Of a DNA stretch of 64,000 nt, positions 25,470 to 57,540 are shown piece after piece. The DNA is from Incurvaria masculella (Eukaryota; Arthropoda; Insecta; Lepidoptera; Incurvariidae). The notes under the pieces are model-generated. The model was not told the DNA's origin. It did not search any database and saw nothing but the letters and a program-made list of their open reading frames with translations. The position numbers and the translations under genes were made by a program. Location: positions 7,649,001 through 7,713,000 of the forward strand of contig OX335652.1 in assembly GCA_946894095.1 (NCBI GenBank). The letters are read 5' to 3'. Numbering within the stretch: the stretch's first letter is position 1; each line of letters begins with the position of its first letter.

Positions 25470-25670
25470 TCAGAAGTAGTACACCTGATCCGTTCCCCGG
25501 TCGAAGTGCACGCGTTTCGCGCGCAGCCATCAGGGCGCGTCGCGGTCGGGGGGCTCGGGCGCGGACAGCTGGAAGGTGGGGGGCGCGGGCCGCGACACCG
25601 GCAGCACGGCCACGTCCATGGTGTCGTTGATGTTCTTGTGCCAGAGCTCGAGCACGACGCTGCGCCGGTG
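25470..25670 (-). other. Coding-like tail beyond the exon 6 stop
   Basis: In frame with exon 6 after its TAG come 46 codons, every one ending in G or C, including HRRSVVLELWHKNINDTMD and QLSAPEPPDRDAP. Then come a TGA, 19 more codons ending RVHFDRGTDQVYYF, and a second TGA. This looks like a once-translated C terminus. Whether it is lost, read through, or spliced differently cannot be told from this window. Confidence 0.6.
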
Positions 25671-25712
25671 CTACTTGTAGCGAGGCGGGCCCAACCAGCC
25701 GCAGCCGAATAC
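25671..25712 (-). CDS. Exon 6 (last) of the TMEM272-like gene
   Basis: The acceptor GTGCTGTCGCAG precedes GTATTCGGC. It encodes VFGCGWLGPPRYK and TAG. It joins exon 5 in phase 0, giving LAFCQ-VFGC. The neighbouring tandem copy at 25780-25900 has the same words and the same TAG but no AG acceptor, so this copy is the usable one. Confidence 0.65.
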   Translation of the reverse strand, partial: VFGCGWLGPPRYK

Positions 25713-28700
25713 CTGCGACAGCACGTACCATGTCACACTTTTAATATACACTAGGGTGCATGGTGATTGGAGGGGTCAGGCACGAACAGCTGGGAGGAGG
25801 GAGATGCCAGAGCTCGAGCGCGACTTTGTGCCGGTGCTACTTGTAGCGAGGGGGACCCAGCCAGTTGCAGCCGAACATTAGTGATATAACGTAACATGTC
25901 ACACTTTTAATATACACTAGGGTGCATCGTGATTGGAGGAGTCAGGTACGAACATCTGGGAGGAGCCTAGAGATATGGGAATCGGTAAAAACTGGGCTAT
26001 TCGTAAGTGATTCGCCACTTGCTCCGGTGCACCCTGTCATTTCTAGGACGTGTCACCAGACAAATGGCTAGCGGGATCGGCAGCAGCGACGACCAGGATA
26101 TCTCACCCCCACACGATAAAGAGCTAAATCAGAACGAACACGTTTAGCGTGCGGTGGCACCACTTGTTCGACTCAAATACAGTTGGCGTCAAGTCCGGCT
26201 ACTTGATCCACAGCACCCAGTACTTTCTAGGAGCTCTCACCTGACAAAACGCCAGTGCGACCGACAGCAGCGACAACATGGACACCATGCCCCCAGGATG
26301 CCAAGTTTAGGCAAAGCGAACACGTACATCTTCCGGTGGTATTATTTGTTTGGCTCGAACAGAGCGGGCGTGCAGTCCGGCCTCTTGATCCGCAGGATCC
26401 AGTAGTTTTTAGGAGCTCTCATCTGACATAAGCTAGCGCAACTGACAGCAGCGACAGCAAGGACACCATGCCCCAGGATGCCGAGTTTAGCCGGAGCGAA
26501 CACGTACTGCGTCCGGTGGTATTATGTGTTCACCCGGTACAGCACCCGGTAGTTTCAAGGAGTTTTTACCTGACAAAAGGCGAGCGCGACCGTCAGCAAC
26601 GACAACAAGGAAACCACGCCCCACACGATGCAGATCTGAATGAGAGCAAACACGTACACCATATGGCGGCACAACTTGTTCGGCTCGAACAGAGTTGGCG
26701 TGAAATCTGGCCACTTGATCCGCAGCAGCCAGTAGTTTCTAGGAGTTCTTACCTGACAAAAGGCCAGCGCGACCGACAGCAGCGACAATAAGGACACCAC
26801 GCCCCACACGATGCAGAGCTGAACCAGAGCGAACACGTACAGCGTGCGGTGGCACCACTTGTTCGGCTCGAATAGAGTTGGCGCGAAATCTGGCCACTTG
26901 ATCCGCAGCACCCAGTAGTTTCCAAGACCGAACCTGCACCAAGAATAAATACGGGATCTACAAGATCAGAAGTGCCATACGTTTACTAAGAATGCAATTG
27001 AATAGGACAGACGTTTTATTCTATCAGACATTCCAAAGGGTTGTAGGGGGTCGTCTGCACCATGAAGAACGATCTTTCGGAGCTTAATTTTATTTTCATA
27101 CAATTAAATGAACTCTGTAGGCCATTTACAACTGCACCGGGTAGAAGCCACAAATATTGTTTTTTTTTTACAAATATACCATTCAATATAATTCTATTAT
27201 TACGAATTGAGTCCCGACTAACAAAAAGGCAAAGGCCACAAACATCTCTTAAGACATGATTTTGTGTAAGGAGTATTTCTTTTTATTTGGCAAGATAATC
27301 CTATGATATCCTTTCAATGTTGTACATTTTTTGTACCATCGTTAACTTCTTACGATTTAGATTCAATGCTTACAATATCTTCAGAGCACAAAGTCGGAAA
27401 AGATTGATTTATACAATCCTCGACAATGATAGAGCTGCAGTAAGACGTTTGCGTTGGATGCAATGCATCTCAAAGTCCTTCAAGAAAACTTTAAGCTATA
27501 ACAGAAACACAGTTGGGTGCTATCAGATGTCGGGTAGACACAAAGAATAGAATAATATTGTGGAAATGCCTATCTCCCGCCACTAGCTACTCCGTGCTTG
27601 TCACCGTCATAAATTAATTTCATAAAGGGTTGCCAGATCTTTTTTAACCGACTTCAAAAAAGGAGGAGGTTATCAATTCGTCGGAATCTTTTTTTTTAAT
27701 GTATGTTCACCGATTACTCGAAGACCCCTGGACCGATTTGGAAAATTCTTTTTTTGTTCGAAAGGGTATACTTTCTAGTTGGTCCCATTGTTTTTTTATC
27801 AAAATCGGTTCAGTAGTTTGGTACTTAACTATAACAAACATCGAATTTCTTAACCCCGCGAACCCAGAAATGTGATTTTTTAGTTACAGTTGCTTTCTTT
27901 TCGGGTGAGATTGCTCAGTATGATAGGTTTTTTTTTACTTCAACTGTTGGGGGTATTCAAGGGGGGTAAAAGAGGGCAAATTGTACACATTTCTATATCT
28001 AGAGCCGCTGAACCCAGAAATGTCAGAGTATGTTTTGTTTTAGATGGGAATGCTTAAGAAGAAAATATTTTTGGAAATTATACTATTAGGGGGGTAAAAC
28101 AGGTCAAAATTAGCACATTTAGGCGCAAACCACTCATGTTGAGATCTCTGAAACCCATTATCCTCGAAACTTAAAATTTTCAGTGACTTCTTGTTAAGAC
28201 GAAAAGGCTCGCTCACAACGGATTTTACAAAATTCAACTGTTAAGGGGGTATAAACGAGGCCGATATGTACACATTTTCATACAACTTAAACTTACGCAA
28301 GAAACAGACTATCCGGAACGATGGAAGGATGAGAAATTCAGAAGCTCAGCGGTTCCGGTCATTCGTTGTTTTGTCTTTTTAGGGTTCCGTTCCCAAAGGG
28401 TACCAACGGAACCCTATTACTAAGCTTCCGCTGTCCGTCCGTCCGTCCGTCTGTCACAGCACTCTATCTCACGTGATCTCATCGTATCAATTATCGTACG
28501 TATCAACCGTGAACTCATGAATCAAGATAGTTACCGGTCTACCTTTCGTCAGAAATGAGATTTCTCAATGGTTTCATTTCTGCTAATGCTCGTTCATTGT
28601 ATTGTATTGTATTGTATATCTTCTTTCCACTTTGTATGTGAAGTTAAGCAGGAGGGCTCGCCCACCTTGAGTCAAAAGTTACGCCACCACTAAAAAGCAA

Positions 28701-31700
28701 AAAATAAAATATTTTTAAATAAAAAAAGGACCGCCTTCAAAAAAACCGGAACTAAAAAGCAAAAAATTATTGGTTACTTTTAATTAATGTACGAAAAGCT
28801 ATTTTAATTCTAAATAATTATGTACAATTTCTTAATTTTTAATCATCTTTCGAAGTCGGTGCCTTGGGTAGGTTTACCAAGACTTTTATGCTGTGGACAT
28901 GCAGGAAGTCGGCGTTCCAGTCACATAGCTCGGGTGGAAGGCCATAAGAGGGCTGCTTGGAAAGCAGTGCCTTGTGCTGGACCCGGATTGATTTTCTGCG
29001 CCCAAATGTATTTCCAATCACTACCGTATTCTGCGAAATTGTAGCTGTTAGAATGAATCACAGTATCATAACGGTACAAAAACTAAAAGTAAGACATAAT
29101 ATAATATAATAACATATAATGTTTAGTATCTTTTGTACAATCTGCAGTTCACCCCGCCTCACCTGCTCCGCACAGATGAGGGGCGGCGCTCAATTATTAG
29201 ACAATTACCAACATCTGCGGAGCGAGGGATTTTGAGTGGATTTGCGGGACTGTTCCGAGCTTCCGGGACAATTTTCAAGCGTCCTTTTACACTTCTGGCT
29301 ACTTTTTTATCTTGAAGTTTGCATGGTAACTTCTATTTTTCAGGCTAGAACTACGAATTCAGAGCTATTACGAGTTACTAATCACCGATCGATAAATCGC
29401 TTAAGGTGGCCCAACCCGGCGGCCTCAACTCATTTGCGGGCACGGTACAAAACCGTGCTGTTGCGCTCTGGGACCTTCTCTGTTTCTAAGAATAAGACAG
29501 GCTCCGTTATGAGGAAGATGCAACCTGTCCACAAAAAAGACAATGTGCATAGTGTATGATTTGGTAAGATTTACGAAAATTTTAATTTCAAAACGACTTA
29601 TAGCTAAAAGTAAACCACGACCGCTGTAGTCAAAAATCTAACAAAAACCAAATAGATTATAAATTTTGATTAAACAAGCTATGTCTGATGACTAATCTTT
29701 TTAATATGTTCTTACTTTATCATTGCGTAATCCACCTCCAAAGTAATTGTATAAAACGCGCGAAAAATCCGAACTTTCGGACGTTATAACTTGGAAACCA
29801 AACACAATTTTACAATGCTAATGGTCATCAGACATCTAGTTCAATCAAATAAAGCTATATTGAGCAAAATTTTGGATCTCTGACAAGAAATATAGGCGTG
29901 ATCTTCTTTCCCCTTTTGTATGGGGAAATGAGCGGGTTGGGCCACCTTAAAATATCGATTTCGCCGGTTTACACCATTGAATAGAGCATCTGAGGGATAC
30001 ACTAAATTGCTCGTTCGTGGATTTTTATGTCTGTGTAGATACATATTTTCAACGCATTTATATTATTTTTCATTTCTACACACATATAGAAATCCTTGGA
30101 AAGGTGATTTTGCGTAGTAATTAAAATGTGGTGTTAATGGAGGCTTTGGAGCAGGTTGTCATTTTGTCAAACTTGTTCCAACGTGTGTGCGCACGTTTCG
30201 GCACTATTTACTACCGTTCGTACGATCGGCCCTACTCAATTTATAGTGATTTTGAATATTAGACGGCCACAAGCGCGGTGAAGCGAGAAAATAGGCATGT
30301 CTGGCATTTTACCAATTCTGTGAGTAGACTAGACTCGCCCGCCTCGAGCTATTCAATTTCATTCGGATTTAAAGGAGACCGGGAGCATTTTACATTTCAG
30401 CTGTAGAGCTTAAGGGGGTTCTCGTTCATCACGTAGATGGCGCCAAGATCGTTCGTCGCTATTTATGCTATAACTCCTTACTATAACAGAAAACGAGCAC
30501 ACCATACCAAATAATTGAGCATGATGCCTGTACCAACAGAAAATATTCGGGGCCTGCCAGTCCCGAGCACACAAACCCGTTTCTGCCACCGAACCCGTTT
30601 TCACTGCGCGCCTCATGGATTTCTTCTTTGACACAAAAGGTGGACAGCCATTCGAACCAACTGATAAGCTATATAGATAGACCGGACCCATTTCTTTGGA
30701 AATATTTTGTGGAAATATATGAAAACATATATTTATAGATATACTTATTGTAATACAAAAAGAGCTAGAGTTTGAAAAGAGCTGAACGTAAGATTAAAAA
30801 AAAATGCAAAATTTTGCTCACTTTCTCACAATCAGTTATGCAACCATTTGTTGTAAATTCTTCATGAGATTAAACACATTACTACCTCATGAGCCACTCC
30901 AGTATAATTAGTAACTTTTTATTTATGGGAAGAAACGACGAACGACCATTTTGCACAAATCTCAGACTTGGAAGTGGCAGTAAAATATTTGCGACATCTC
31001 TACTCTAGTGGAGTATTTCGGTAGCGTAATCGAAATTCCCAACACTATGGTGAAATGGATTCCTTCCATCTTTCAATAAGTTGTGGAAAAAGTTGGTTGA
31101 GTTTTCTTCTGCTATCACCGAACAACCAATTCAGAACTGGGCCTAATAGTAGAGTTAAAGAAAAGTTATGCGTCATCAAAACTTTTGCGACGCACTCAAA
31201 AGTAGCTAGCTGATTTGAAAATAATAAACAACTGAGCAAACAAATCCCGTTATAATCTAATCAGTATTTTTGTTAATAGTTAAAGAGAAGGTCCATTGAG
31301 CAACGTTTTCTCAAGCATCTAATGTTTCGCACACAGCAAAGTTACACATGCACTTTAGGCGCCTGCAAACACTACAATGGAAAAATGAAACATACAAAAG
31401 GAAAATAGGATGATCTCTAGACAAGGAATCATTATATTGTAATAATGAAAATTCCAATCGTCAGACTTAGCTATAAGCTTACTCGGGGTGCCTGGTAAAA
31501 CTTTGCGATTTAGCTAGTACCAGGGTCTTAAAAATCGCCACCCTTACCAGGCTACAATGAAGATGGTGAGAAGCCAGGAAGCGACGCGCTCGGGCACGCT
31601 AGCGGGCTGCGCGGGCACGGCGCGGCTCGCCAGCTGCGACCACAGCAGCCAGCCGAGCCGCGCGCCTCCCGCCACGCCGCCAACCACCATGTACACGGGC

Positions 31701-34700
31701 AGGTGGGGCTCCGCCGGGCAGTCCCGGATGTACTGCACGCCTGCGCATTCAGTGCTGATATATCGTCGTTGCGTAGCGTGGACTAATCTAGACGCCAGAG
31801 GACGACGCGCTCGGGCACGCTAGCGGGCTGCGCGGGCACGGCGCGGCTCGTCAGCTGCGACTACAGCAGCCAGCCGAGCCGCGCGCCTCCCGTCACGCCG
31901 CCCACCACCATGTACACGGGCAGGTGGGGCTCCGCCGGGTAGTCGCGGATGTACTGCACGCCTGCGCATTCAGTGCTGATATATCGTCGTTGCGTAGCGT
32001 GGACTAATCTAGACGCCAGGACGACGCGCTTGGGCCCGCTAGCGGGCTGCGCGGGCACGGCGCGGCTCGTCAACTGCGACTACAGCAGCCAGCCGAGCCG
32101 CGCGCCTCCCGCCACGCCGCCAACCACCATGTACACGGGCAGGTGGGGCTCCGCCGGGTAGTCGCGGATGTACTGCACGCCTGCGCATTCAGTGCTGATA
32201 TATCGTCGTTGCGTAGCGTGGACTAATCTAGACGCCAGGGGACGACGCGCTCGGGCCCGCTAGCGGGCTGCGCGGGCACGGCGCGGCTCGTCAACTGCGA
32301 CCACAGCAGCCAGCCGAGCCGCGCGCCTCCCGCCACGCCACCCACCACCATGTACAGGGCAGGTGGGGCTCCGCCGGGCAGGCGCGGATATAGGTACTGC
32401 ACGCCTGCGCATTCAGTTCGGTCTACGCACCGACTAACCGTAAGATAATACGTAAAAGCTATTTAATGGGTTTTAATGAAACGTTACAATAATATAGATT
32501 TTACATTACAATAACACATAGGCTACAATTTATAAAGATATTGTGTGAATTTTTTAAAATTTGTTAAAATCTATTTGCTCGGTTTACATAAAACAATGGC
32601 AGAAAGGAACACTTAATACCAAATGGCATTCTCTACCAGTATACCTTAGGGATATCACGAAAACATATTAGGTAGCAAAGAAAAGTAACAGAGAGTGTAA
32701 TAAAACTTAACTAGTTGACAAATTTGTAAATATTATAACATACAAATATAATAAATATGTTATTACATAAACTATAATATAATACTATTACATATAAAAG
32801 TACATACACATATTTATATAAAATATATACTTCTACTTTTTTTTTTTTTTTTATGTGACTGGACATGGATGGCTAATACCACAAGTTCTGTCATGGTATT
32901 AGCCCAACACACCACATGGGAGCTAGGTGCCATGCCAGGACCTTCCTTATATTGCACGGCTACATTGAACTGGATGGAAAACACGGACAATTTTCATTGC
33001 CGCTTCGACCATCGTTCATCCAATGCGATGGTACCAACCCGGGCGGGATAAACCCTACCACCTAGTAAGTAAGGAAGGGGACCTACAGCTTAACGTGGAA
33101 TCCGAACCACGGCCAGCCTCTCTCAACGGTCTAATGGTCACCCATCCAAGACCAGACCGGACCGAGCGTTGCTTAACTTCGGAGAGCGATCGCCGAAGTG
33201 TCGCGCCACTGGGCCACTGAGGCTGTATACTCTACTCTATATTTATTGGGACATAAAGTGGTTAATTTACTTAAAATGTAAAAATAACCTTCTTTTAAAA
33301 ATAAGCAAATAACAGTAAGTAGGAAAACAATCTAGCCTTTTGGACCACCCATTTAACTTAATTTCCAACACTTAGGGTGGAGTGCACCAATCAATAGTTA
33401 ATGTTATCGTTATGGTTATTATATATCCGTTCTTGTTTTTCGCCCAAAGAAAGAAGTAGATAGATCTATAATAACCATAAGGATAGCCCTAACCAGAGAT
33501 GGTGCCTATATTTTTGCACTTCGATAAACGAAAATGCAAGAAAATATAAGTTTTAATTACTCAGGATGTAACCAAAGTAATTTAAGTGAAAATTATATGA
33601 AATTTCTAACTCCAAACACACAAATTGATATAGGGTACTTTTGTAGAACTAACGTGGGTGTGACCATTATTGGAGCAACCAAAACTAAATATATGTGTGA
33701 ACGACGTGAAGCATTGCCGTTTGACAATCAAGGTGAAGCAACTCTGGGCACAATCTGGTTGACCGTTGAAGCTGACCGCTGGTAGGGTTAATCCCGCCGT
33801 GCCGTATTTTTTCTATATATTATTCTGTAACTGGACATGTATGGTTAATACCACACCTGCTGTCATGATTTTAGCGACCCAAAAATCTACTTCTGAGCAG
33901 TGTTTCGCCTTGGGTTCTGGTCCACTGCCGCGAATTGTACTTTGCTTGTATGATTTCAGGAAAAAAACTTACCCATGATGAGCATGATGAGTGGAAGAGT
34001 GGATAGGCAGGCCAGAAATACAGTCATGACAACTGCGGAAGAGAACATTGCTTAAATATGAGGACCGATATTATACTAGTGAGTAGTTAGTATACAGGTG
34101 ATTGGAAATTCATTCGTTCTAAGGGGTCATTCTAGAGTGATTTGCAACTTGTTTTTGAGTTATTTAAGATTTAAGTTTTATTTAATATTTTGTATTATTA
34201 GGAAAAAGTTATAATTGTAAAATAACTACTACACTCTGGGAACTTCATCAGCGATTTTTTTAAAGCTGATGAATGAGAGACTACTTTAAAAAAAATATAT
34301 ACATTCAAAATGTCCATAATCTCATAAAAAAAAGTAATAAATTACAGTTGATGTAAAAAAAAACTACAACATATTTATTCAATTCAAAATGGATTAAAAA
34401 AAAAATTATTCACACTTGTCATGATGACACTTAAAGGGCCTGTATTACTAAAGTGCTGATTATCTTGCACTGGTATTGATTGCAAGCTGCTAAGAAAGGC
34501 TCTTAATATGTGGCGATTAAGCTAATCAGCGGTAGGTGAAAAAGGCCCTAAATTACTTAATTATTTTATAAGCTTCCAGAAAATGTAAGAATGTTGTCCA
34601 CTTTCACCTAAGTTCGATTTTTTTTTGGTTGTTTCGGTTTTATTGAAGATAAAAAAAAGATTCCGACGAATTGAGAACCTGCACCTTTTTTTTGACGTCG

Positions 34701-37700
34701 GTTAAAAAGGGTCCTCATATTTAGCGGTAAAATTTATTTGTACACATAACTAAACGTTATTTCATTGTTGACTGGGCTTGACTTTCACTGGGCCAAATTT
34801 GTTGGACGCCTTATGCCCCCTGACCCCTTAATATTGACCCCTTAGAAGGGATGTATCGAATTTACAACCACCCTGTATGTTTGTCAAGTGTTTGTGAATA
34901 ATGCTAGTAATACGAATAATTTTAGTATTTTTTTAAGGTTATAAAAATGTTACGAAAAAGGATGAAGCTGAAAGTCCACAAGTAATGTCTTAGACTTGTT
35001 TATACTAAAACCATACCCATACTTAACACGATGTATGACAAGATGAACGACACCCATACACTTGTAGATACATCCGAACGTTTTTGATCCCACATAGGTC
35101 CTAGCTGAAAACCAGCAGCCTGTAAAGTTTATGACTAGCATGGCAAGCTGAACTAACGAATAAGTACTACAAATATGATTAACTTTACCAAATAGACAAA
35201 TGTTAGAATCAGCATTTGAACGTTAAATGAGCCAATATACAGACTGTTGCAACGGCCTCGTGTTTTTCCAAGACAATAAGTTTTTTTTTCTCTAAGGTGT
35301 CTAGTTACTAAGTTATGAATTTCTGCAGTTTATTTGCGGGTAGTGGTAGGACGCCCCGCCTGAAGACCGGTCGGCGGGGGAAGGGTCACGCAGCACGTGA
35401 CATCAAACCCGACCCTAGGGTGCTACTGGACTTGTGTCGTCGATGGTGTGGCTAAACTAATGAATAACTTTTTATTTAGAGGATATTCAGAAACATCTAT
35501 TACACTTTTTGCTAATGTCAATCCCAATAATCATTTTCTAAATTGTATGTACTGGCCGTTGCAACAGCCTGTAGAGTTTGAGTCGGATGCACAATCACGG
35601 AGGTCTCCGTGTCCATAACTAACACGCAACGTTCTACGATCGGAAATAATAGTTATGCGACGTTCTACGATCGGAAATAATAAACATGCAACGTTCTACG
35701 ATCGGAAATAATAAACATGCGACGTTCTACGATCGGAAATAATAAACATGCGACGTTCTTGGATCGGAAACAATAAACATGCGACGTTCTAAGATCGGAA
35801 AGAGACCTACTGGTCCGATTGACGATCCTGACCGCGCGGCAGACGAAGTCGCAGGTGCCGGAGGCCTCCATGTTGGCGTCCTTGAGCTGGTAGGCGACCG
35901 AGCCGTACGTGGTGAGTCCGAGCCCCAGCCCGTGGCCGAGCCCCCCGGACTCGACTCCGTACTTGGACTGCTCGCCGCACAGCCGCCGCTGCTCGTCGCC
36001 GGACACCTGCGCCGACTTTACGTTACATTAAAACCGCTCCGCTTCATGCCTCCCGTTCGTTATGCTGCTATCTCGGGTAAAAGAATCCGGCCAAGTGCCG
36101 GACTCGTACACGAAGGGTTCCGTACCATCGGACAAGATTTAACGCAACAAAATCACGTTTACTATTTTTTATTTAACCTATTTGTTGTTATAGCGGCATA
36201 ATAAATACAAACTCTGTGAAAATGTCGGCTGCCTATACCTATTACGTTTCATGAGATACAGCCCTGTGACGGACGGATGGACGGACGGACGGAAAGACTG
36301 ATGGACGCACGAACGGACAGCGGAAGGCTAGTAATAGGGTTTCGTTGGCACCCTTTGGGTACGGACCACGGAGGATAGAGGTAGAGAGATGGTCTAAGCA
36401 AACTGGGTCTGTGTCCACCAAGTGGGTCGCTACGTCACAGCCCACGTGATAAAGAAGGCGTGGCTTAGCGACATTCGCGACATGGCGCTAGCGGTGAAAG
36501 AAAAGAAAAAAGAAAAGGTAGGTATTTGTCAGTAAAACACCTCATATTTTATAATTTGAGTCAATATACAAGATACAATGCTCGATTGTATCGATGTATC
36601 GCTCATGCTATGTGCCGATAGATGGCGCGCAATAATTTTCGTTTTACGGTAAGAAATGTTGATCTCATGATGCAAATTTTAATGACATTTTTAAATTAAA
36701 ATTATTTGAATCCGCGCGAAGGCATAGATTTAAATTTCTAAGGTTTTTTTTTAGAAAAAACACTTAGTAAAATTTAAAAGGGACCATCTAGTTGTAGTCT
36801 TGTAACCACTAAGAATAGCTCTCGGAACAGCTGCTACCAGTATATCGATTCTTCCGGTAGATGGATTTCGCAAAAATGGGCGGTGCATGACCCCACCATG
36901 AAACGATTTTCCCCCCGCTTCCCCGCACAGTGTCACGCTCCGATCCTTAGTAATATGAGTTAAAAACATCTCCTCTCTCCCTCTATCCTTTCTTTTCGGT
37001 TATGTGGCTGCTATCAGAACGTTAAACATAGGCTAGAATCTGCAACTGCGCCCTTAATATATCTTTCGACAACAAAAATGTCATTGAGGCTTATGCAACT
37101 TTAAAAAAAAGAAAAATTTTTTGTTTGATCTTGATAATGACGTATTTTTATTTATTTATTTATTTGGTATGCCAACAACATTATACACAAAACAGTTTCA
37201 TATTTCACTACTAAAAATAACAAATTAGTGTGTACATGTTAATTATAGGCCTACACAGCTTCCTTACAAGTAAATATAACAAATCAATTTAATTTAATTT
37301 GCTTGAAGAAGAACTATAAAATATGCAAAACAATTAATAATAATAAAAGAGATGACAATAACCAATAAGCAAAATAATAAGATTTCCAAAAAGTGATACA
37401 GGTACTACTGTTCCTTGAATTTTCTACTCACTGTAACTATATTTATGGTTTAAAAAAAAGAAAAATAACAGAGATATTAAAAAATAATAAAAAATATCCA
37501 CTTATGCTTATATAAAAATCTTTTTAATATCCTGAATGGAACAATAAAAAAAGTCGATGGAGTTCCTATTTGATAGTTGGGAAAGCCTGACAGAAGGTGA
37601 GTGTGATCCAATGTTTGTTCGACATCTTCTCACCGAGAAAGTTTTTCTGTCTTTAAGCCTGCAACTGTTTCGAGGAATTTGTATTTTGATTCTTTGTAGA

Positions 37701-40700
37701 AGGTCCTCACAGTCTATTTTCCCATTTAAAACTCCATGCATAAAACATAGATCTATCCGATCGCGCCGTTTCTCCAGATCTTCAATGCCATATAAATCTA
37801 ATCTATCCTGGTAGTGAGTGATACGCTTACTTATTTGGTCCTTAAAGCATAGATGGTACAAAAATCTTTTCTGAATGCGTTCGATTCTGGCAGCATGTAC
37901 GGCGTAACAAGGTTTCCAGGCTGTGCTACAGTACTCCAAAATGGGTCTCACGAGACTAAAGTAAAGTGATTTTAAAGTGTTAGAATTTCTAAATATTTTA
38001 AACTGTCTAATAACAAATCCCAATATTTTGGATGCTTTTTTTATTATTATATCATAGTGATCAGTAAATTTCATTTTTTTATCTAAAACAACTCCGAGAT
38101 CACGAAGGCATTAATTAATTAAAGGGTTTACATCTTCAAATGGTCTCCAATCATAATAAGTGAACTGATAAAAAATGGTTCTAGGTTCCCTGTATAAACA
38201 TCCACCCCAGAAAACAAACAAGAACATTAAAATACGATTCATCATCATGGCTGTAGCGCTGACGAGTGACTAGACCGGTGTACGAGTGCCGTACCTGGCT
38301 CACGGAGCTGCTGGCGCGGCGGGAGCCAGCCTCCGATACGCTGCCGGAGTAGCCGTGGTTCACCTGCGTCCCTCGCCCGCCCGCGCCGCCCGCGCCTCCG
38401 CCGCCGCCCAGCGAGCCGCGGTACGGCGACACGCTGCGGCCGCGCGTCGTCGCTGCACACGGACACATTATGAGCAATCTTTCCGTTATATTTTTCCGTT
38501 TCCGAGACCTCTTTCCGTTATATTGACGCCAAGCGTAGAGTAAAAGGGACATTAGGAACTGTTTCTCCTCTCAGTGTATACATTTGAAAGTAAACGACCG
38601 TACTGCAGAATTGTGTCACCCCTCTGCGAGACGGGCCTAGCACAGTGCAGAGTAGGTGAGCCTAAAACAACACGCTCCTACGTTACGAATGTCTGTAATA
38701 ATACTTATTAATTAAAAAAAAATGCCGCGCTAATTGCGCTAGGTTTTCTTGGCAAAAGCCAGGCCGTCGTATGAAAGTTACCCGATGCCGCCCATGGACT
38801 TTCGAAATTTCACGGGGCTGCGAAAACCATGTCGACATGTTTGAAGGGTTTGTAGGTTGTACTTTGACATTTAATTTCACAGTTAAACGACCCTAATATT
38901 AAAGGATCTCGAGGATTGGTTCGTTCTTATTTTGGGGATGTATAAAAGTGGTGCATTGCCTGCCTGTTCCGCGTTGAATGATGGTAGGTAGCTCCGTCGA
39001 GCGTTCTCTATGTGTACAGCTCCGTCGAGAGTTCTCCATGGTAGACACAATAGAACACAGAAAGAGACCCAACATTCCTTTGGAGTTGGAGGATCTCTAA
39101 ATGAAGGGATACGTCGGGGTCACTGACGAGACGCACGCCATGACGCTGTATCGAGTCCAGAGAGCAAAACAGGCACTTTTTTTTTATGCGACCCGACATG
39201 GATGGCTAATACCACACAACTACCGTTATGATATTAGCCCAATACACCACATTCCCGAAGGAATTTGGTGCCATGCCAGGACCTTCCCTTTATGAGCACG
39301 GCTACATTGAACTGGATGGAAAACACGGACAATTTTTCATTGCCGCTTCGACCATCTTTTCATCCAATGCGATGGTATTAACCCGGGCGGGCTTAAACCC
39401 TACCACATAGTAGGGGAAGGGGACCTACAGTTTTACATGGATTCCGAACCATGGAGCAGCTCGCATTCGTGATGAACATGCACTTATCGAACTCGGAAAG
39501 AGAAAGACAGTGTGGTGCATGTCGGTATTGAACCCAGGTCTCTGGTACGCTAGGCCAGTCCCCGCGCCACTAGGCTACGAGCCGCTCAAAATTAAGCTGA
39601 ACACTTAGCTGAGTTCCTTTAGAAGCCCTTTAGAGTTCTCAATAACCAACAGTTAACAAGCAAGAGAAGCCGCTGTTCCCAATATCGTGAATCGCAAGCA
39701 AACCGCCATGCTGGTGGTTTGTCATCTTGGCGAGTGCCACGTCGATGCAGTCCATTCAACGAGAAAAAAATATTAACACATAGAATTTCTAAAGAATAAC
39801 CCTAGAATTTCTGCACCAATTACAAAGCACAACATTGTTTTATTCCAATGTAGCACTTTTAAATTTAATGGCTGGAACTCGCGGAATACTTTTTGAAATA
39901 AAATTATAATCAACTAAAAGGATGTGGATACTAAAGTAAATGCTATAATAAATGAATTGACTGAATTCGCACTTAACGCATATCCTTCGGTTGGTAAATT
40001 GTATTAACGATCCCATTCTCTTCTTTTATGTATGCTGGATACACAATCCCGCTGCCGCCTCCGCCGCCCGCGTCTGCCATGATAACAAATGACGGCTGGC
40101 TCAGGACTTGACGCCTCTCTCTGAGTTTGCTATTATGCGGGTATCAGGACGGGCTTAAGATACAACAAATTTGGCACGGAATATAATGTTTGTTAATTGT
40201 GCATTGCTTCGGAAACCTGTTACAGGCATTAACCCGTTCGTTTCGATGAAATATTAACGTAATTGCTGTGACGCCACCGTCTACCCAAAATCAATTTAAT
40301 TATTTTAGTAAAATATGGTTGGTTCTTGAGCAAAATTAAAGGTCAAGGATTTTACAACCTTGGAAAACTTGAATATAGAATGGTGTTTATATTTGGTCTA
40401 CGTTTCTTTCTCGCCATTTCGAGACCAAGTCTGGTCTGTCTCTTCAGATATCTCTCTCGACTAAATTTGTTTATCTTGCAAGAGTAGCTTGCACACAAAA
40501 AATATTACATTAATGATTGTAAGTTAGAATAAACCGTGGAACTCTCTCCCTGCCATGGCATTTACTCCAAAGTACATACTATCTGGGGTCCTTCAAACAT
40601 GGCGTGAAGAAGCACCTGACCGGCCGGCATGGTTTACGTAGCCCTCATGTAAGTTCGTAGCTCATGGGCATCGTCGAGCACCTCTTTTCTGTGAGGGCCT

Positions 40701-43700: not shown

Positions 43701-44920
43701 ACGCCGGGCTCAGCGTATTGAGTGCGAGCGGGATAGACAATATTGACGTTTGTTGTATGGGCACCCCCTTTAATTCTAAATATTTCGTAATGTCTATGAT
43801 TTGTTGTTCTAGCGGCAAGGGAAATACACACTCTGTGAAAATTCCAACTGTCTAGCTATCACGGTTTCTGAGATACAACCCTGTGACAGACGGACAGACG
43901 GACGGACGGACGGACGGACGGACGGACGGACGGACAGCGGAGGCTTAGTAATAGGGTTCCGTTTTCACCCTTTGGGTACGGAACCCTAAAAAGGATCGTC
44001 TCTAAATTCTGGGATATCTTGGCGTCGTCGACGAGATACCTACACGGTATGGCGTCGTATCGAGTAGTAGGAGCAGGTACTCAGTCTGAAGTTTAGGTCA
44101 TGCGTCAGGTCGACACCGATAGTCGATGTTAGCTGCTCCCGTGATAATCGGCAGATAGGTGTTATAGTAATTGGCACTTTAATGCTGGATTGCGTCTTAA
44201 ATTGGTACAAGTTTGGAATTATTGTGCTTGCCGGTCTAGGAATTTACCTTGAGTTGTGCTGTCATCGCTCGCTCTTCGCTCGCGCGTCACCAGCGGCTCC
44301 TGGAAAGTGAGGGTGAGGCTGCCGCGCGGACTGACGCGGGTCGTGTCCAGGGCGCCACCCGAGCCCGGTGCCAGAGAACCCCGCGGACTGCGCTGCGTGC
44401 CGCCGCCTGCTTCGCCCGCCAGCGACCCACGCGGGCTCCTGTTGCTCTCCGAGTAGCCCGCGTCGGGCGCGATGCTGCCTCGGGGGCTCGTGCGTGCCCC
44501 CGCACCCCCCTCCGCCTTCTGCGACCGCCCCGAGTCCAGCTGAATGCTCGCGACCGAGTGGCGCGGGCTTCGGCCGACGTCCGGCACGAGAGAGTTGCGC
44601 GGCTGCCCCCAGCCGGCGGCGTCCGGAACGAGGCTGCGGCGCGGCGTGCGCGCGCTCGCGTCCGGCGTGATGCTGTTGCGCGGGCTGCGGTTGAAGTCCT
44701 GCGGGTTGAGGCTCAGCCGCGAGCCGTACGCGGCGTCCGGCGCGAGGTTGTTGCGGGGCGCGAGGCTGTTGCGGGGCCCGAGCGCCGAGTCGGGCACTAT
44801 CGAGTTGCGGCCGCTCCTGCCGTCCGGAGCGAGGGAGTGGCGCGGGCTGCGGTGAGCGGCGTCGGGCGCGGGCGCGGGCGCGGGCACGAGGCTCGCGCGG
44901 GGCGAGCGCTGGCGGCTCAT
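25671..44920 (-). CDS. TMEM272-like multipass membrane protein, six exons
   Basis: Joined on the minus strand: 44920-44248, 38452-38295, 36006-35811, 31740-31548, 26933-26753, 25712-25671; 1,443 nt, 480 residues, all exon phases compatible. Residues 1-224 are a basic, Ser/Pro/Arg-rich repeat region starting MSRQRSPRAS. Residues 225-342 are Gly/Ser-rich and then a short linker. Residues 343-467 form the membrane part: CPAEPHLPVYMVVGGV (about 350-365), a second hydrophobic segment ending AWFGLGNYWV (about 396-415), and a long third segment (about 437-466) after PNKWCHRTLY. This order resembles, from memory, insect TMEM272-like proteins, whose function is poorly known. The inferred topology is a long cytoplasmic N-terminal tail on a small membrane domain. 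An in-frame upstream ATG at 45028 could start a longer form. Exons 4, 5 and 6 have tandem broken copies. The family name is inference; the exon model is better supported. Confidence 0.72.
25780..25930 (-). pseudogene. Tandem copy of exon 6
   Basis: 166-bp unit repeated from the true exon 6. It keeps FGCNWLGPPRYK followed by TAG and then HRHKVALELWH, and the flanking word GTCACACTTTTAATATACAC. The acceptor position reads CACTAAT rather than CGCAG, so it should not be spliced. Confidence 0.7.
25931..26056. other. Intronic spacer with a partial exon-6 unit flank
   Basis: GGTGCATCGTGATTGGAGG and CTGGGAGGAG repeat the flank found after the first exon 6 unit. No exon here. Confidence 0.5.
26057..26752 (-). 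pseudogene. Array of four exon 5 copies
   Basis: Copies at about 26570-26752, 26423-26569, 26241-26420 and 26057-26238 follow true exon 5 head to tail; the unit is 183 bp (61 codons). The nearest copy is open and in frame with exon 5 (NYWLLRIKWPDFTPT, then ALAFCQ) and has its own donor-like CAG|GTAAAAAC. The next lacks about 40 bp of its middle, and the last two carry substitutions that break the frame. None has an upstream acceptor of its own. Confidence 0.8.
26753..26933 (-). CDS. Exon 5 of the TMEM272-like gene
   Basis: The acceptor ATTCTTGGTGCAG precedes GTTCGGTCTTGG; the donor is TGTCAG|GTAAGA. 181 nt. With TG from exon 4 it makes Trp, then FGLGNYWVLRIKWPDF, PNKWCHRTLYVF and a long hydrophobic stretch to LAFCQ. 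It supplies the end of the second and all of the third membrane segment. Confidence 0.8.
26934..28378. other. Intron 4, proximal part
   Basis: No exon seen. Contains the ACCGACTTCAAAAAAGGAGG repeat (27640-27850) with the usual follow-on GTTCACCGATTACTCGAAG and ATCAAAATCGGTTCAGTAG, then AT-rich sequence. Confidence 0.55.
27640..27850 (+). repeat. ACCGACTTC...ATCGGTTCAG lepidopteran repeat
   Basis: The most complete of several copies in this window. It is a common moth repeat by memory. No ends or duplication could be fixed. Confidence 0.7.
28379..28470 (-). repeat. Lepidopteran TCCG-microsatellite repeat, copy 7 (truncated)
   Basis: Terminal hairpin (GGGTTCCGT...AACGGAACCC), three to four TCCG units and CTGTCACAGC, then unrelated sequence. 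Confidence 0.85.
28594..28618. repeat. ATTGT microsatellite
   Basis: Five tandem ATTGT units. Confidence 0.85.
28839..29010 (-). pseudogene. Non-LTR reverse-transcriptase fragment (Jockey-like)
   Basis: The minus strand encodes VQHKALLSKQPSYGLPPELC followed by W-N-A-D-F-L and S-I-K-V. This matches the conserved RT block preceding the catalytic motif in Jockey-type LINEs (usual form: kaLLsKLpsyGlpxxlcxWxxsFL). Both ends run into unrelated sequence. It is an inactive scrap in intron 4. Confidence 0.7.
29401..29950 (-). mobile_element. TTAA-flanked MITE, copy C
   Basis: 550 bp with TTAA at both ends, TTAAGGTGGCCCAACCCG and its inverse. It is in opposite orientation to copies A and B and has the best-preserved terminal repeats of the three. 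Confidence 0.85.
29951..31379. other. Intron 4, distal part
   Basis: No exon seen. 30420-30690 shares words with 8215-8310 (GGCGCCA, ATAACTCCT) and holds a 93-codon minus-strand frame that I take as repeat-derived, not a gene. Confidence 0.5.
31380..31545 (+). repeat. CTAGTACCAGG repeat, partial copy
   Basis: AATCGTCAGACTTAG, GCGATTTAGCTAGTACCAGG and GGAAACATAC-like words. Fuller copies are at 46640-46960 and 55618-55968. It abuts the donor of exon 4. Confidence 0.65.
31548..31740 (-). CDS. Exon 4 of the TMEM272-like gene
   Basis: The acceptor CTGAATGCGCAG precedes GCGTGCAG; the donor is GTAGCCTG|GTAAGG. 193 nt, entering in phase 1 and leaving in phase 2. It encodes VQYIRDCPAEPHLPVYMVVG, GGARLGWLLWSQLASRA and WLLTIFIVA. 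Only this copy of the four keeps the donor and the second hydrophobic segment. Confidence 0.8.
31741..32425 (-). pseudogene. Array of three partial exon 4 copies
   Basis: Units of 219-221 bp each contain about 60 bp of upstream intron (with TATATCGTCGTTGCGTAGCG on the plus strand), the acceptor GAATGCGCAG and the first ~160 bp of exon 4, then jump to the next unit before the WLLTIFIVA part and donor. Two copies have TAG where the true exon has the Trp codon of WLLW. The outermost copy has a 1-nt deletion after GTGTAC-like sequence (TGTACAGGGC). Confidence 0.82.
32426..32545 (+). repeat. Helitron 5' region fragment
   Basis: TTTTAATGAAACGTTACAAT and ACACATAGGCTACAATTTAT match Helitron positions 11065-11135. 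Both ends are missing. Confidence 0.65.
32546..32836. other. Intron 3, AT-rich
   Basis: No exon or repeat boundary seen; TA-rich runs. Confidence 0.45.
32837..33226 (-). mobile_element. 5S-type SINE, best copy
   Basis: On the minus strand the head has a tRNA-like A box TGGCCCAGTGG (33206-33216), then a 5S rRNA internal promoter: CCGAAGTTAAGCAACG and TTGGATGGGTGACC (33136-33182 region). Next come GTTGAGAGAGGCTGGCC and GTGGTTCGGATTCCACG, and the same ~300-bp body and GCCATCCATGTC end as the tRNA-type SINEs, with an A tail. A 5S-derived Pol III promoter makes it a SINE3-class element by definition. The mixed head is unusual. Confidence 0.82.
33375..33510. mobile_element. Palindromic MITE, GTGCACAATCTCT family
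   Basis: AGTGCACCAATCAATAGTTA at the left and TAACCAGAGATGGTGCC at the right are diverged inverted ends. The inner parts (ATCGTTATGGTTATTATA and its inverse) pair well. Confidence 0.65.
33655..33880 (+). mobile_element. Rearranged 5S-type SINE pieces
   Basis: A plus-strand head piece (GCATTGCCGTTTGACAATC, GAAGCAACTCTGGGC, TGACCGTTGAAGCTGACCG) resembles 13250-13370 inverted. It is followed, in the opposite sense, by a SINE tail (CTGGACATGTATGGTTAATA). Both are old. Confidence 0.5.
33881..34427. other. Intron 3, no feature recognised
   Basis: AT-rich sequence with A runs. Confidence 0.45.
34428..34556 (-). mobile_element. Short MITE with AAGGGCCT ends
   Basis: About 125 bp. AAAGGGCCTGTATTACTAAAG at one end and GTGAAAAAGGCCCTAA at the other. 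The copy at 52298-52425 is inverted and has the same loop (TATTGATTGCAAGCTGC-like). Confidence 0.7.
34557..35239. other. Intron 3, repeat scrap only
   Basis: 34660-34712 is a fragment of the ACCGACTTC repeat on the minus strand (TTCCGACGAATTGAGAACC). Nothing else recognised. Confidence 0.5.
35240..35571. mobile_element. TA-flanked element with CAGxCTGTTGCAACGGCC ends
   Basis: 332 bp. CAGACTGTTGCAACGGCC at the left, GGCCGTTGCAACAGCCTG at the right, and TA on each side. It contains the GC-rich repeat copy (35330-35450). A larger relative is at 60718-61403. Non-coding. Confidence 0.78.
35330..35450 (-). repeat. GC-rich dispersed repeat, copy 3
   Basis: GTGGTAGGACGCCCCGCC, GGTCGGCGGGGGAAGGG and GGGTGCTACTGGAC match 23110-23330. 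Confidence 0.6.
35625..35806. repeat. 31-bp minisatellite, about six units
   Basis: GTTCTACGATCGG starts at 35631, 35662, 35693 and 35724; slightly changed units start at 35755 and 35786. The spacing is exactly 31 bp. The last unit touches the exon 3 donor. Confidence 0.93.
35811..36006 (-). CDS. Exon 3 of the TMEM272-like gene
   Basis: The acceptor AAAGTCGGCGCAG precedes GTGTCCGGC. The chosen donor GGACCA|GTAGGT gives 196 nt and the phase that exon 4 needs (A+GC = Ser). It encodes VSGDEQRRLCGEQSKYG, LTTYGSVAYQLKDANMEA and CDFVCRAVRIVNRT. The donor is not a strong consensus, so the 3' edge is the least certain of the model. Confidence 0.7.
36083..36366 (+). repeat. Lepidopteran TCCG-microsatellite repeat, copy 8
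   Basis: From AATCCGGCCAAGTGCCGG to CCTTTGGGTACGGA, with an impure ACGG tract. It lies in intron 2. Confidence 0.87.
36367..37145. other. Intron 2, no gene feature
   Basis: Purine tract at 36500-36520 and a pyrimidine tract near 36965. No exon or repeat ends seen. Confidence 0.45.
37146..38112 (-). mobile_element. 5'-truncated LINE with reverse-transcriptase C terminus
   Basis: An open frame from about 38108 down to the stop at 37508 encodes LRDLGVVLDKKMKF, then LYFSLVRPILEYCSTAWKP and ARIERIQKRFLYHL, the conserved post-catalytic part of Jockey/CR1-type ORF2. A ~360-bp 3' region ends in (TTTA)n at 37146-37164, equal to a TAAA tail on the coding strand. The RT core and endonuclease are missing. 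The ~200-codon frame has no stop, so the insertion is fairly young. It lies in intron 2, same strand as the gene. Confidence 0.85.
38295..38452 (-). CDS. Exon 2 of the TMEM272-like gene
   Basis: The acceptor CCGTGTGCAG precedes CGACGACGC; the donor is GAGCCAG|GTACGG. 158 nt. With G from exon 1 it gives Ala, then TTRGRSVSPYRGS, a Gly-rich run and NHGYSGSVSEAGSRRASSSV. Ser-rich and basic, likely disordered. GC-rich codons stand out sharply from the AT-rich intron. Confidence 0.8.
38780..38835 (+). repeat. Helitron internal fragment
   Basis: GCCCATGGACTTTCG and CACGGGGCTGCGAAAAC match Helitron positions 11140-11180. Confidence 0.6.
38885..39060 (+). repeat. Diverged repeat, partner at 61680-61850
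   Basis: GATCTCGAGGATTGGTTCG, GCCTGTTCCGCGTTGAATG and AGAGTTCTCCATGGTAGACA have counterparts at 61680-61850. It is probably an old LINE piece; no clear frame. Confidence 0.45.
39177..39589 (-). mobile_element. tRNA-type SINE, near full length
   Basis: The minus strand has TAGCCTAGTGG (A box), CTGGGTTCAATACC (B box), ATGCACCACAC, CTTTCCGAGTT, the complete body, GCCATCCATGTC and an A tail. About 410 bp, lying in intron 1. Confidence 0.88.
39973..40080 (-). CDS. Small ORF, possible alternative first exon
   Basis: The ATG at 40080 lies in the good context ATCATGG. 35 residues: MADAGGGGGSGIVYPAYIK then EENGIVNTIYQPKDMR, and TAA. The start is GC-rich in an AT-rich intron. If a donor were used at ATATGC|GTTAAG, the phase would fit exon 2 of the surrounding gene and give a short alternative N terminus. 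The donor is weak. I do not recognise the peptide. It could also be chance. Confidence 0.35.
   Translation of the reverse strand: MADAGGGGGSGIVYPAYIKEENGIVNTIYQPKDMR
40081..40527. other. Intron 1, no feature recognised
   Basis: AT-rich sequence without repeat ends. Confidence 0.4.
40528..40725 (+). pseudogene. LINE ORF2 C-terminal fragment, frameshifted
   Basis: WNSLPAMAF in one frame continues in another as YYLGSFKHGVKKHLTGR and RSPHVSS stop. W-N-x-L-P followed by a short F-K-x-x-V end is the usual close of Jockey/R1-type ORF2. One frameshift and no upstream part, so it is dead. Confidence 0.7.
40726..40780 (+). repeat. Lepidopteran TCCG-microsatellite repeat, copy 9 (first end only)
   Basis: AAAACCGGCCAAGTGCAAG to GGTTCCGTACCATCG, then lost. 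Confidence 0.8.
40848..41145 (-). mobile_element. tRNA-type SINE
   Basis: The minus strand keeps the B box GGGTTCAAATCCCC (about 41106-41119), CTTTCTTTCTTTTTCAGAA and the body as far as CACCTAATTCCTTCGGGAAT. The last tail segment is missing. Confidence 0.8.
41146..41454. other. Intron 1, T/A-rich
   Basis: Long T and A runs; nothing recognised. Confidence 0.4.
41455..41725. mobile_element. MITE family B split by a family A insertion
   Basis: GGTTACCATGATAAATC and AGGTGAACAGG on the left, TTTGACGTTTAGTTGAATTT on the right, match family B. The 119-bp family A copy at 41527-41645 divides it. Confidence 0.65.
41527..41645 (+). mobile_element. MITE family A, copy 3 (internally deleted)
   Basis: GGGCCGAGTGCACGAAAGG to TGCAATCGGGGCTAA. 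About 45 bp shorter than copies 1 and 2, lacking the GTCACTTTGTGTGG stretch. Confidence 0.78.
41726..42291. other. Intron 1, no feature recognised
   Basis: AT-rich. The 80-codon minus-strand frame is Phe/Tyr-rich and looks like chance. Confidence 0.4.
42292..42575. repeat. Repeat interrupted by MITE A copy 4; partner at 56580-56700
   Basis: GGTAGTCAAACTACACTAAG before the insertion and TAAGTCATGTCAC...GATCCGCGGATTCGATCAAC after it. The partner at 56580-56700 has these two parts joined, so it shows the empty site. Confidence 0.75.
42341..42503 (+). mobile_element. MITE family A, copy 4
   Basis: GGTCTAGTGCACGAAAGC to GCAACCGGGGC. TAAG flanks both sides, where the empty site has one TTAAG. The duplication is therefore about 4 bp. 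Confidence 0.78.
42634..43036 (+). mobile_element. tRNA-type SINE, full length
   Basis: A box TAGCCGTGGCGCGG, B box GGGTTCAATTCC (42682-42693), the complete body and GCCATCCATGTC followed by an A tail. With 39177-39589 it defines the family. Confidence 0.9.
43140..43262 (+). mobile_element. SINE tail fragment
   Basis: TTTCCATCCAGTTTAACGT, GTCCTGGCATGGCACCTAG and a diverged end (GCGATCCATATACATG). Confidence 0.7.
43485..43743 (+). promoter_or_regulatory. GC-rich island with a TATA box (tentative)
   Basis: TATATAAAG at 43617-43625 is followed within 30-60 bp by a very CpG-rich stretch (GGGGCGGCGCGCGTCGCGGC). This could be a plus-strand promoter inside intron 1. No clear initiator, exon or protein start follows, and a TCCG repeat begins at 43744. 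Confidence 0.3.
43744..43991 (+). repeat. Lepidopteran TCCG-microsatellite repeat, copy 10
   Basis: Lacks the CCGGCCAAG end, starting at TTGACGTTTGTTGTATGGG. Has one of the longest ACGG tracts of the family (about nine units) and the final hairpin GGTTCCGT...ACGGAACC. Confidence 0.87.
43992..44247. other. Start of intron 1
   Basis: Ordinary sequence next to the exon 1 donor (CTCAAG|GTAAAT). Nothing else seen. Confidence 0.5.
44248..44920 (-). CDS. Exon 1 of the TMEM272-like gene (SPR-repeat region)
   Basis: 673 nt from ATG (44920) to the donor CTCAAG|GTAAAT. It encodes about a dozen imperfect repeats of the form R-S-P-R-x-S-L-x-P-D-A, e.g. RSPRHSLAPDG, GPRNSLAPRNNLAPDA, RSPRNSITPDA and TPRRSLVPDA, ending REEE-like in RERRASDDSTTQ. 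Likely disordered and rich in R-x-S phosphorylation sites (inference). Two other frames are also open through GC richness, but only this one shows repeats and the right donor phase. An in-frame ATG at 45028 would add 36 residues (MLHRSSSSRRRRAS). Confidence 0.8.
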
Positions 44921-45180
44921 GTCGCGGTCGGCGGCGGGCGGGGAGGGCGGAGCGGGGCGCGCGGCCGGCGAGGTGGCGGCGCTTCTCGAGGCGCGTCGCC
45001 GGCGGGAGGAGGAGGAGCGGTGCAGCATGCCGCGACGGCCGCCTCCCCGCCCGCGCCCCTCCGCCGCGCGCCCCCCGCTGCCCACTCACATCGCCGGCGT
45101 CGCCTCCGCCGCGCTGTCTGCGCGCGCGTTCTCAACTCTTCAGTTAGCCTGCAACAACATTGTACACTGCTTATTTTCAC
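44921..45180 (-). promoter_or_regulatory. CpG-rich 5' region of the gene
   Basis: Very GC-rich up to about 45125, then AT-rich. GTGAGT, a strong donor word on the minus strand, sits at 45084-45089, so a 5' untranslated exon may end here. No TATA box is obvious. The transcription start is not fixed. Confidence 0.4.
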
Positions 45181-56852: not shown

Positions 56853-57540
56853 TCTATACTAATAATAAATCTGTAATGGGTGTTCATTCAGTAAGTTGCT
56901 TTGTTTTCTAAGATACTTCGTTTGTAGACTTTATGTAAGACTAAAACTAAATTGATGATTTTTAGAAATCAGTTGTGTATGTATGTCTGTATGTTCCTCC
57001 ATAACTCTTAAACTGATCATCCGAATTCGATGAAACTTACTACACGTATATGTAAATACACGGGACACAGGATAGGCTATATATAATTCAGTTCCGCTTA
57101 CGTTAAGATGTAGCTGTCATACAAACCGAAATGCCCCGAGGCGGCGGCTTGGGGGGTAATCACTATTATTATTATTATTAAATTTTTTTTTATTAAATTT
57201 TTTTTAATAATAAATCTGTAATGGGTGTTCATTCAGTAAGTTGCTTTGTTTTCTAAGATACTTCGTTTGTAGACTTTATGTATGATACTAAAACTAAATT
57301 GATGATTTTTAGAAATCAGTTGTGTATGTATGTATGTATGTTCCTCCATAACTCTTAAACTGATCATCCGAAGTCGATGAAACTTACTACACGTATATGT
57401 AAATACACGGGACACAGGATAGGCTATATATAATTCAGTTCCGCTTACGTTAAGATGTAGCTGTCATACAAACCGAAATGCCCCGAGGCGGCGGCTTGGG
57501 GGGTAATCACTATTATTATTATTATTATTATTAAATTTTA
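56853..57540 (+). mobile_element. Tandem duplication of a Helitron 5' half
   Basis: Unit 1 starts A|TCTATACTAATAATAAATC at 56853. Unit 2 restarts at about 57206 with the same words. Each runs through GAAACTTACTACACGTATAT and AATTCAGTTCCGCTTACG to GGCGGCTTGGGGGGTAATC and (ATT)n. The units are nearly identical (about 310 bp). The sequence resembles part of the Helitron at 50587-51721. A CTAG occurs shortly after (57549) but is not followed by T. Confidence 0.75.

What the first reader, a model, noticed from the sequence alone, without database searches (positions are those of the whole stretch)
25671..32425. Three exons of one membrane-protein gene each carry a private array of tandem partial copies
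Exon 4 has three extra partial copies (about 220 bp units), exon 5 four (183 bp) and exon 6 one (166 bp). The arrays have different unit lengths and break points, so they arose separately, yet all sit in the last three exons of the same gene. In each array only one copy keeps the splice signals needed for the 480-residue product. Repeated local amplification in one gene suggests an unstable structure, copy-number selection, or an assembly artefact confined to this gene.
Basis: partly seen in the sequence, partly recalled or inferred. Interest (0 to 1): 0.75.

Follow-up and report, generated by a model that had tools for sequence, protein, structure and literature searches.

The report
Genome-wide tandem exon-fragment arrays in moth
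In this moth genome, pieces of exons have been copied in place over and over, leaving rows of broken exon copies that mostly keep only one of the two splice signals; it happens in many genes, not just the one first noticed, and may show how splicing decides which duplications survive.

Summary
The minus-strand gene (7 coding exons, 536 residues to its stop, not 480) carries private arrays on its last three exons, here 5, 6 and 7: 3 extra copies (219-221 bp), 4 (about 183 bp, one shortened) and 1 plus a fragment (166 bp). No copy was found elsewhere in the 552-Mb genome. Within each array only one copy has both splice sites. Extra copies show stops, frameshifts, lost splice sites or changes at conserved residues, so they look like neutral pseudo-exons.

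Such arrays are genome-wide. Of 30 randomly drawn 7-kb kinase-exon regions, 7 held 8 exon arrays, against 2 comparable non-exon clusters (6 if minisatellites are counted). GPCR, ion-channel and, by match positions, kinesin exons have them too. Copy identity runs from 99% to about 71%. The 19 arrays I could classify repeat one exon edge: donor 14, acceptor 5.

Best reading: continuing in-place duplication of one-edge exon segments, tolerated because splicing ignores copies with one splice site. Exon enrichment is likely but rests on few arrays; its cause is unknown. Reads, RNA and related moths could not be examined.

The parts
44248..45028 (-). coding exon 1 (ATG at 45028; SPRxSLxP-rich)
   Evidence: open frame, GT donor; 23 of 25 lepidopteran orthologue proteins also begin MLHR
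38295..38452 (-). coding exon 2
   Evidence: AG/GT, phases 1 and 0
35811..36006 (-). coding exon 3
   Evidence: AG/GT; matches orthologues
33973..34032 (-). coding exon 4 (hydrophobic, first membrane helix by inference)
   Evidence: AG/GT; matches orthologues
31548..31740 (-). coding exon 5, functional copy A: the only copy with both acceptor and donor; last in gene order
31790..31961 (-). exon 5 partial copy B: acceptor kept, donor absent, in-frame TAG
   Evidence: 94% identity; stop
32011..32180 (-). exon 5 partial copy C: acceptor kept, donor absent, in-frame TAG
   Evidence: 94% identity; stop
32230..32404 (-). exon 5 partial copy D: acceptor kept, donor absent, small insertions/deletions shift the frame; its upstream flank is not that of the unit
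   Evidence: 91% identity
26753..26933 (-). coding exon 6, functional copy A: the only copy with an acceptor; first in gene order
26570..26739 (-). exon 6 partial copy B: donor CAG|GTAAAA kept, no acceptor; frame open and continuous with copy A
   Evidence: 89% identity; open frame; 5 of 10 residue changes at columns invariant in 25 orthologue proteins
26423..26519 (-). exon 6 partial copy C, shortened; GT of the donor lost
   Evidence: 82% identity
26241..26408 (-). exon 6 partial copy D: donor GTGAGA, no acceptor, stop and frame shift
   Evidence: 81% identity
26059..26227 (-). exon 6 partial copy E: donor-like GTGACA, no acceptor, stops
   Evidence: 82% identity
25530..25712 (-). exon 7, functional copy A; coding to TAG at 25671-25673, then open to TGA at 25530-25532
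25805..25875 (-). exon 7 partial copy B: acceptor destroyed, middle deleted, TAG shared with copy A
   Evidence: 87% identity over 71 bp; alignment
25918..25972 (-). tail fragment of a further exon 7 copy (approximate bounds)
   Evidence: alignment

Best explanation
The arrays are in-place, head-to-tail duplications of exon segments that reach across one exon edge: part of the exon plus one splice site and a short stretch of intron. Extra copies carry a donor without an acceptor, or an acceptor without a donor, so the spliceosome can still join the one acceptor-donor pair that encloses the intact exon; the copies leave with the intron and decay. The process is genome-wide and continuing in this moth (copies 99% to about 71% identical); the window gene, labelled stum-like, is a strong case. 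Shown: anatomy, one-edge build, decay, occurrence in several gene families. Inferred: exon definition as the cause of tolerance, selective loss of two-edge duplications, slippage or unequal exchange as the duplicating step. Not explained: why exons are over-represented among tandem arrays.
For: Window arrays: one splice-competent copy each; stops or frame shifts in exon 5 B, C, D and exon 6 D, E. Functional exon 6 departs from none of 25 columns invariant in 25 orthologue proteins; copy B differs from it at 10 residues, 5 of them at such columns. No match outside the window for exon 5 DNA or for exons 4-7 as protein, at those search depths. Genome-wide: 8 exon arrays in 7 of 30 sampled regions (detail), all eight exons matching a kinase profile, two weakly. 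Tandem same-position matches: 5 groups in PF00001, 5 in PF00225. Of 19 arrays classified, 14 repeat the donor edge and 5 the acceptor edge. Exon versus other clusters 8:2, p=4e-5 against the 18.4% of 180-bp windows that are as GC-rich; 8:6 with minisatellites, p=0.0014.
Against: The enrichment rests on ten (or fourteen) clusters in regions chosen to centre on exons; clusters were called exonic by eye on translations, then the eight exons, not the two others, were checked in Pfam. For target exons alone, 2 of 20 had copies against 39 of 459 same-size tiles, and 3 of 30 in the full sample; the tile count includes transposon copies. Parts of three exon clusters also match elsewhere in the sample (L024 45%, L051 35%, L043 11%). 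Myosin-head exons show no evident pseudo-exon array. A kinesin pair (C4:11941102-11941677) matches the same profile span twice in one open frame and may be a two-edge duplication. In acceptor-edge arrays, copies keep apparently good acceptors that could be used. The functional copy of L047 lies outside the stretch, and its copies' donor (GTCTCT) is poor. No RNA evidence.
Confidence: 0.75

Rival explanations
1. Mutually exclusive or alternative exons (Dscam or Mhc kind): copies encode variant segments chosen by splicing.
For: Exon 6 copy B is open, in frame with copy A (183 = 3 x 61) and keeps a donor, so a longer exon 6 could add 61 residues. Several other arrays have open frames.
Against: In the window arrays every extra copy lacks at least one splice site; exon 5 copies hold TAG or frame shifts; unit lengths are not biased to multiples of three (7 of 19); exon 6 copy B has changed a W, an H, a T and two L that are invariant in 25 orthologue proteins.
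Confidence: 0.08
2. Assembly artefact: stuttered or collapsed haplotypes produce false exon copies.
For: No reads could be seen, so it cannot be excluded directly.
Against: Copies differ by 1-29%, some with shared changes (exon 5 B and C); contigs are chromosome-sized (31 contigs, 552 Mb); arrays of many unit lengths occur in many genes.
Confidence: 0.04
3. An exon-targeted amplifying process: some property of exons or splice sites (GC step, transcription, chromatin) makes them sites of tandem duplication beyond ordinary background duplication.
For: Non-transposon tandem clusters with units of 100 bp or more are 8 exon to 2 other; Tandem Repeats Finder rows of period 100 or more in the 30 regions fall on exons at 5 of 5 loci. 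Units end close to an exon edge in the arrays inspected.
Against: Small sample; survivors only; coding sequence is easier to recognise; GC and coding status were not separated; the tile test shows no excess.
Confidence: 0.3

Closest known systems
Tandem exon duplication with mutually exclusive exons (Dscam, Mhc, nAChR alpha6; recalled, and seen in search listings)
   Same: Head-to-tail exon copies inside a gene, near the original exon
   Different: Here copies are partial, mostly have one splice site, often have stops, and reach at least 16.7 copies (L047)
Intron gain by tandem genomic duplication of an exon segment bearing AGGT (passages read in PMC3443670, and PMC2891723)
   Same: Partial tandem duplication of exon sequence with splice signals involved
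   Different: Here existing splice sites are copied with exon parts, amplification repeats into arrays within an existing intron, and no new intron is evident
Minisatellites / satellite DNA
   Same: Tandem units with turnover and a spread of copy identity
   Different: Units are exon-edge segments of about 130-290 bp tied to the gene's own exon; for the window gene no copies were found elsewhere

Membership tests
Mutually exclusive exon cluster | each copy has its own acceptor and donor | tested here: not met
   window arrays: exon 5 copies B-D lack a donor, exon 6 copies B-E lack an acceptor, exon 7 copy B lacks its acceptor
Mutually exclusive exon cluster | each copy keeps an open frame of compatible phase | tested here: not met
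   stops or frame shifts in exon 5 B, C, D and exon 6 D, E; exon 6 C shortened; exon 6 B open; exon 7 B open to the shared TAG but with its middle deleted
Mutually exclusive exon cluster | copies alternate in mRNA | not testable with these tools
   no RNA data held
Partial tandem (internal) duplication of exon sequence | head-to-tail copies beside the source exon on the same strand | tested here: met
Partial tandem (internal) duplication of exon sequence | copies local, not dispersed | tested here: met
   own-genome searches returned only this locus, for exon 5 DNA and exons 4-7 protein
Intron gain by AGGT tandem duplication | duplication creates a new intron position | tested here: inconclusive
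   arrays lie inside introns; intron positions of orthologues could not be seen
Insect orthologue group labelled 'protein stum-like' (NCBI label of Tenebrio protein P0048) | homology over the membrane region, ending ..YK | tested here: met
   69-78% identity to 25 lepidopteran orthologue proteins, 24 ending in YK; 55 of all 76 proteins returned end in YK, and 7 further lepidopteran models, partial or differently predicted, do not. No Pfam or NCBIfam family passes its cut-off. The name is a label, not a test of function

The most novel reading that the evidence does not exclude
This moth lineage has a continuing process that amplifies exon-edge segments in place across the genome, affecting perhaps a tenth of exons, so that thousands of introns carry arrays of decoy splice sites; splicing rules, not only mutation, decide which duplications persist, with donor-edge arrays favoured over acceptor-edge ones.
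Probability: 0.35. Interest if true: 0.75.

Novelty: new variant of a known kind. Interest (0 to 1): 0.6.

Why it matters
Arrays of one-edge exon copies are natural experiments in splice-site choice: many near-identical donors or acceptors beside one correct partner. If a full scan confirms that they concentrate on exons, they would point to a duplication mechanism linked to exons, add to how introns grow, and confound gene prediction in such genomes.

Tried and rejected
One block duplicated once: rejected, since units and break points differ. A second, intact gene copy elsewhere: none found. Premature-stop pseudogene: rejected, because 24 of 25 lepidopteran orthologue proteins end at the same place. 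RNA structure after that stop: none beyond shuffles (z +1.16). Selection for in-frame units: 7 of 19 are multiples of three. The tile control did not separate exons from other sequence; it counts transposon copies, so I then marked clusters by hits elsewhere in the sample. Turning BLAST's low-complexity filter off left the same clusters. Families without evident pseudo-exon arrays in the match lists: myosin heads (77 matches), ABC transporters (19), kinases at list level (137; only 128 of 629 candidates scored). A last protein search for the extension after the stop returned only its own query. Literature: searches, seen as listings, showed nothing describing genome-wide one-edge exon arrays; one search returned no paper; only open-licence PubMed Central papers are searched.

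Dropped before counts: from the 8:2 count, four transposon-like clusters (L017 168-506, L035 3849-4794, L046 1993-2634, L051 101-448) and four minisatellites (L018 6305-6717, L034 17-333, L042 98-576, L049 5591-5801); the minisatellites are put back in the 8:6 count. From the list of 19 unit lengths: L019, L043 and L051, which have no single period. Not classed by edge: L039, L041 and the kinesin pair on C4; other close match pairs (C26:25865809, C22:7344130, C17:12889288, C19:16882261) were not looked into.
Full report
What is there. The window is C12:7649001-7713000 of a 552-Mb, 31-contig genome. The gene lies on the minus strand. Its seven coding exons have consistent AG/GT borders and phases and give 536 residues to an in-frame TAG. 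Twenty-five lepidopteran orthologue proteins (24 species, one with two isoforms) are 526-587 residues long, 23 begin MLHR as here, and they are 69-78% identical over the conserved half; 24 end in YK. Seven further lepidopteran models returned, partial or differently predicted, do not end in YK; of all 76 proteins returned, 55 do. One beetle orthologue is labelled 'protein stum-like' by NCBI. Of the proteins scanned, none passes a Pfam or NCBIfam cut-off. I use stum-like as a label only.

The three arrays. Exon 5: copies D, C and B stand upstream of functional copy A; each keeps the acceptor, none the donor; B and C share an in-frame TAG, D has insertions and deletions. Exon 6: functional A is first; B, C, D and E follow, none with an acceptor; the donor positions read GTAAGA (A), GTAAAA (B), ATGAGA (C), GTGAGA (D), GTGACA (E). 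Exon 7: functional A is last; B has lost its acceptor and its middle, and a tail fragment of a further copy precedes it. Copies differ from the functional exon by 6-9% (exon 5), 11-19% (exon 6) and about 13% (exon 7). Exons 1-4 have no such array; a 31-bp minisatellite (35621-35801) ends 10 bp from exon 3.

Are the copies functional? Functional exon 6 departs from none of the 25 columns (of 56) invariant in 25 orthologue proteins; copy B, the only open copy of that exon, differs from A at ten residues, five at those columns. Functional exon 5 itself departs at 2 of 24 invariant columns. Pairwise dN/dS is 0.36 (exon 6 A-B), 0.74 and 0.92 (exon 5 A-B, A-C), 0.55 (exon 5 B-C) and 0.56 (exon 7 A-B), from few changes: what a conserved copy against a drifting one could give, though constraint on exon 6 B is not excluded.

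Not private to this gene. The genome returned no other match to exon 5 by DNA or to exons 4-7 by protein. But a PF00001 search returned groups of adjacent matches to the same profile positions: six at C22:12593458-12594815, eleven at C20:1131788-1134254, three on C11, two each on C14 and C9 (148 matches in all). The DNA shows tandem exon fragments: 220 bp x6.1, 223 x11.8, 132 x4.6, 249 x1.9, 188 x2.4, and for an ion-channel exon 179 x6.2 at 99%. A kinesin search gave five groups among 95 matches. In four of them the longest match is first in gene order and the others share, or nearly share, its downstream profile end; in the fifth (C4:11941102-11941677) both copies match the same span in one open frame, so it may be a two-edge duplication. 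No kinesin DNA was fetched. Myosin heads gave only three copies about 440-530 bp apart in one gene, which I take (recalled) for known mutually exclusive exons.

A random sample. Self-comparison gave 18 tandem clusters: eight on exons, in seven of the 30 regions (L018, L019, L024, L043, two in L045, L047, L051); four mostly covered by hits elsewhere in the sample (transposon-like); four minisatellites; and two others (L017 3780-3993, L035 6713-6955). Three of the exon clusters are partly covered by such hits too (L024 45%, L051 35%, L043 11%). All eight exons match a protein-kinase profile, two weakly (E 3.7e-4 and 5.6e-3). The L043 copy lies 548 bp away rather than adjacent. L047 has at least 16.7 copies of 174 bp at 99% and runs off the stretch. 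L045, like the window gene, has two exons each with its own array. The exon searched for had a nearby copy in 3 of 30 (95% limits 3-26%).

Exon enrichment. GC of at least 0.50 occurs in 18.4% of 180-bp windows outside the arrays. Against that, 8 exon clusters of 10 gives p=4e-5, and 8 of 14 with minisatellites p=0.0014. Tandem Repeats Finder rows of period 100 or more in the 30 regions fall on exons at 5 of 5 loci. Against this, a cruder tile test in the first 20 regions found copies for 2 of 20 exons and 39 of 459 tiles, transposon copies included. I regard the enrichment as likely, not proved.

A rule of build. Of 19 arrays classified, 14 repeat the donor edge (L018, L019, L024, L043, L045 second, L047, L051, window exon 6, L037, L038, four kinesins by profile position only) and 5 the acceptor edge (window exons 5 and 7, L036, L040, L045 first). 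The second copy of the L045 second array is cut by an inserted repeat before its donor; L047 copies have a poor donor and its functional copy is off the stretch. Where the full exon is visible it is first in donor-edge and last in acceptor-edge arrays, which follows from the geometry of a one-edge duplication. The donor excess is weak (14:5, p=0.064; 7:1 in the random sample, p=0.07) and would fit a first-donor advantage in co-transcriptional splicing; that is inference.

Mechanism. Most likely ordinary in-place duplication (slippage or unequal exchange), repeated within arrays, with splicing filtering the outcome: two-edge duplications change the message and tend to be lost, one-edge ones are removed with the intron. 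Identity from 99% (L040, L047) to about 71-74% (L051, L019, L043) points to a process still running, with old arrays decaying. Why exons are hit so often is open.

Compared with what is known. Partial exon duplication as a route to new introns is established (passages read in PMC2891723, and PMC3443670), and full-exon duplications used as alternatives are well known (recalled). I found no paper describing genome-wide arrays of one-edge exon copies in the searches named under Tried and rejected.

Noticed in passing
25530-25673 (-): After the conserved TAG (..RYK*) the frame stays open for 46 codons to TGA; its start (RRSVVLELWHKNINDTMDVA) matches the Leptosia nina predicted protein (25 of 51 identical, E 1e-11) and the Chilo suppressalis one, whose models skip the segment that ends RYK. 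Candidate stop-codon readthrough, or an alternative acceptor at TAG|C. No RNA structure beyond shuffles.
   Followed up: partly
24001-24295 and 24365-24659: A 295-bp inverted repeat, 99% complementary with 69 bp between the arms, downstream of the gene; looks like a young hairpin element.
   Followed up: no
35621-35801: 31-bp minisatellite (5.8 copies) ending 10 bp from the donor side of exon 3.
   Followed up: no
56860-57527: AT-rich 347-bp tandem duplication (1.9 copies, 98%), no coding sequence noticed.
   Followed up: no
L036 2059-2801: Beside the 220-bp GPCR exon array lie three more tandem arrays (units 135, 112 and 134 bp, 97-98%), not interpreted.
   Followed up: no
L047 1-2894: 174-bp kinase exon-edge unit in at least 16.7 copies at 99%; the unit is 3 x 58 and the frame stays open until the last copy seen.
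   Followed up: partly
G000:C4:11941102-11941677: Two kinesin matches to the same profile span, 294 bp apart in one open frame: possibly a full or in-frame duplication, unlike the other arrays.
   Followed up: no
G000:C4:6754006-6755170: Three myosin-head exon copies about 440-530 bp apart, probably the known mutually exclusive set (recalled).
   Followed up: no
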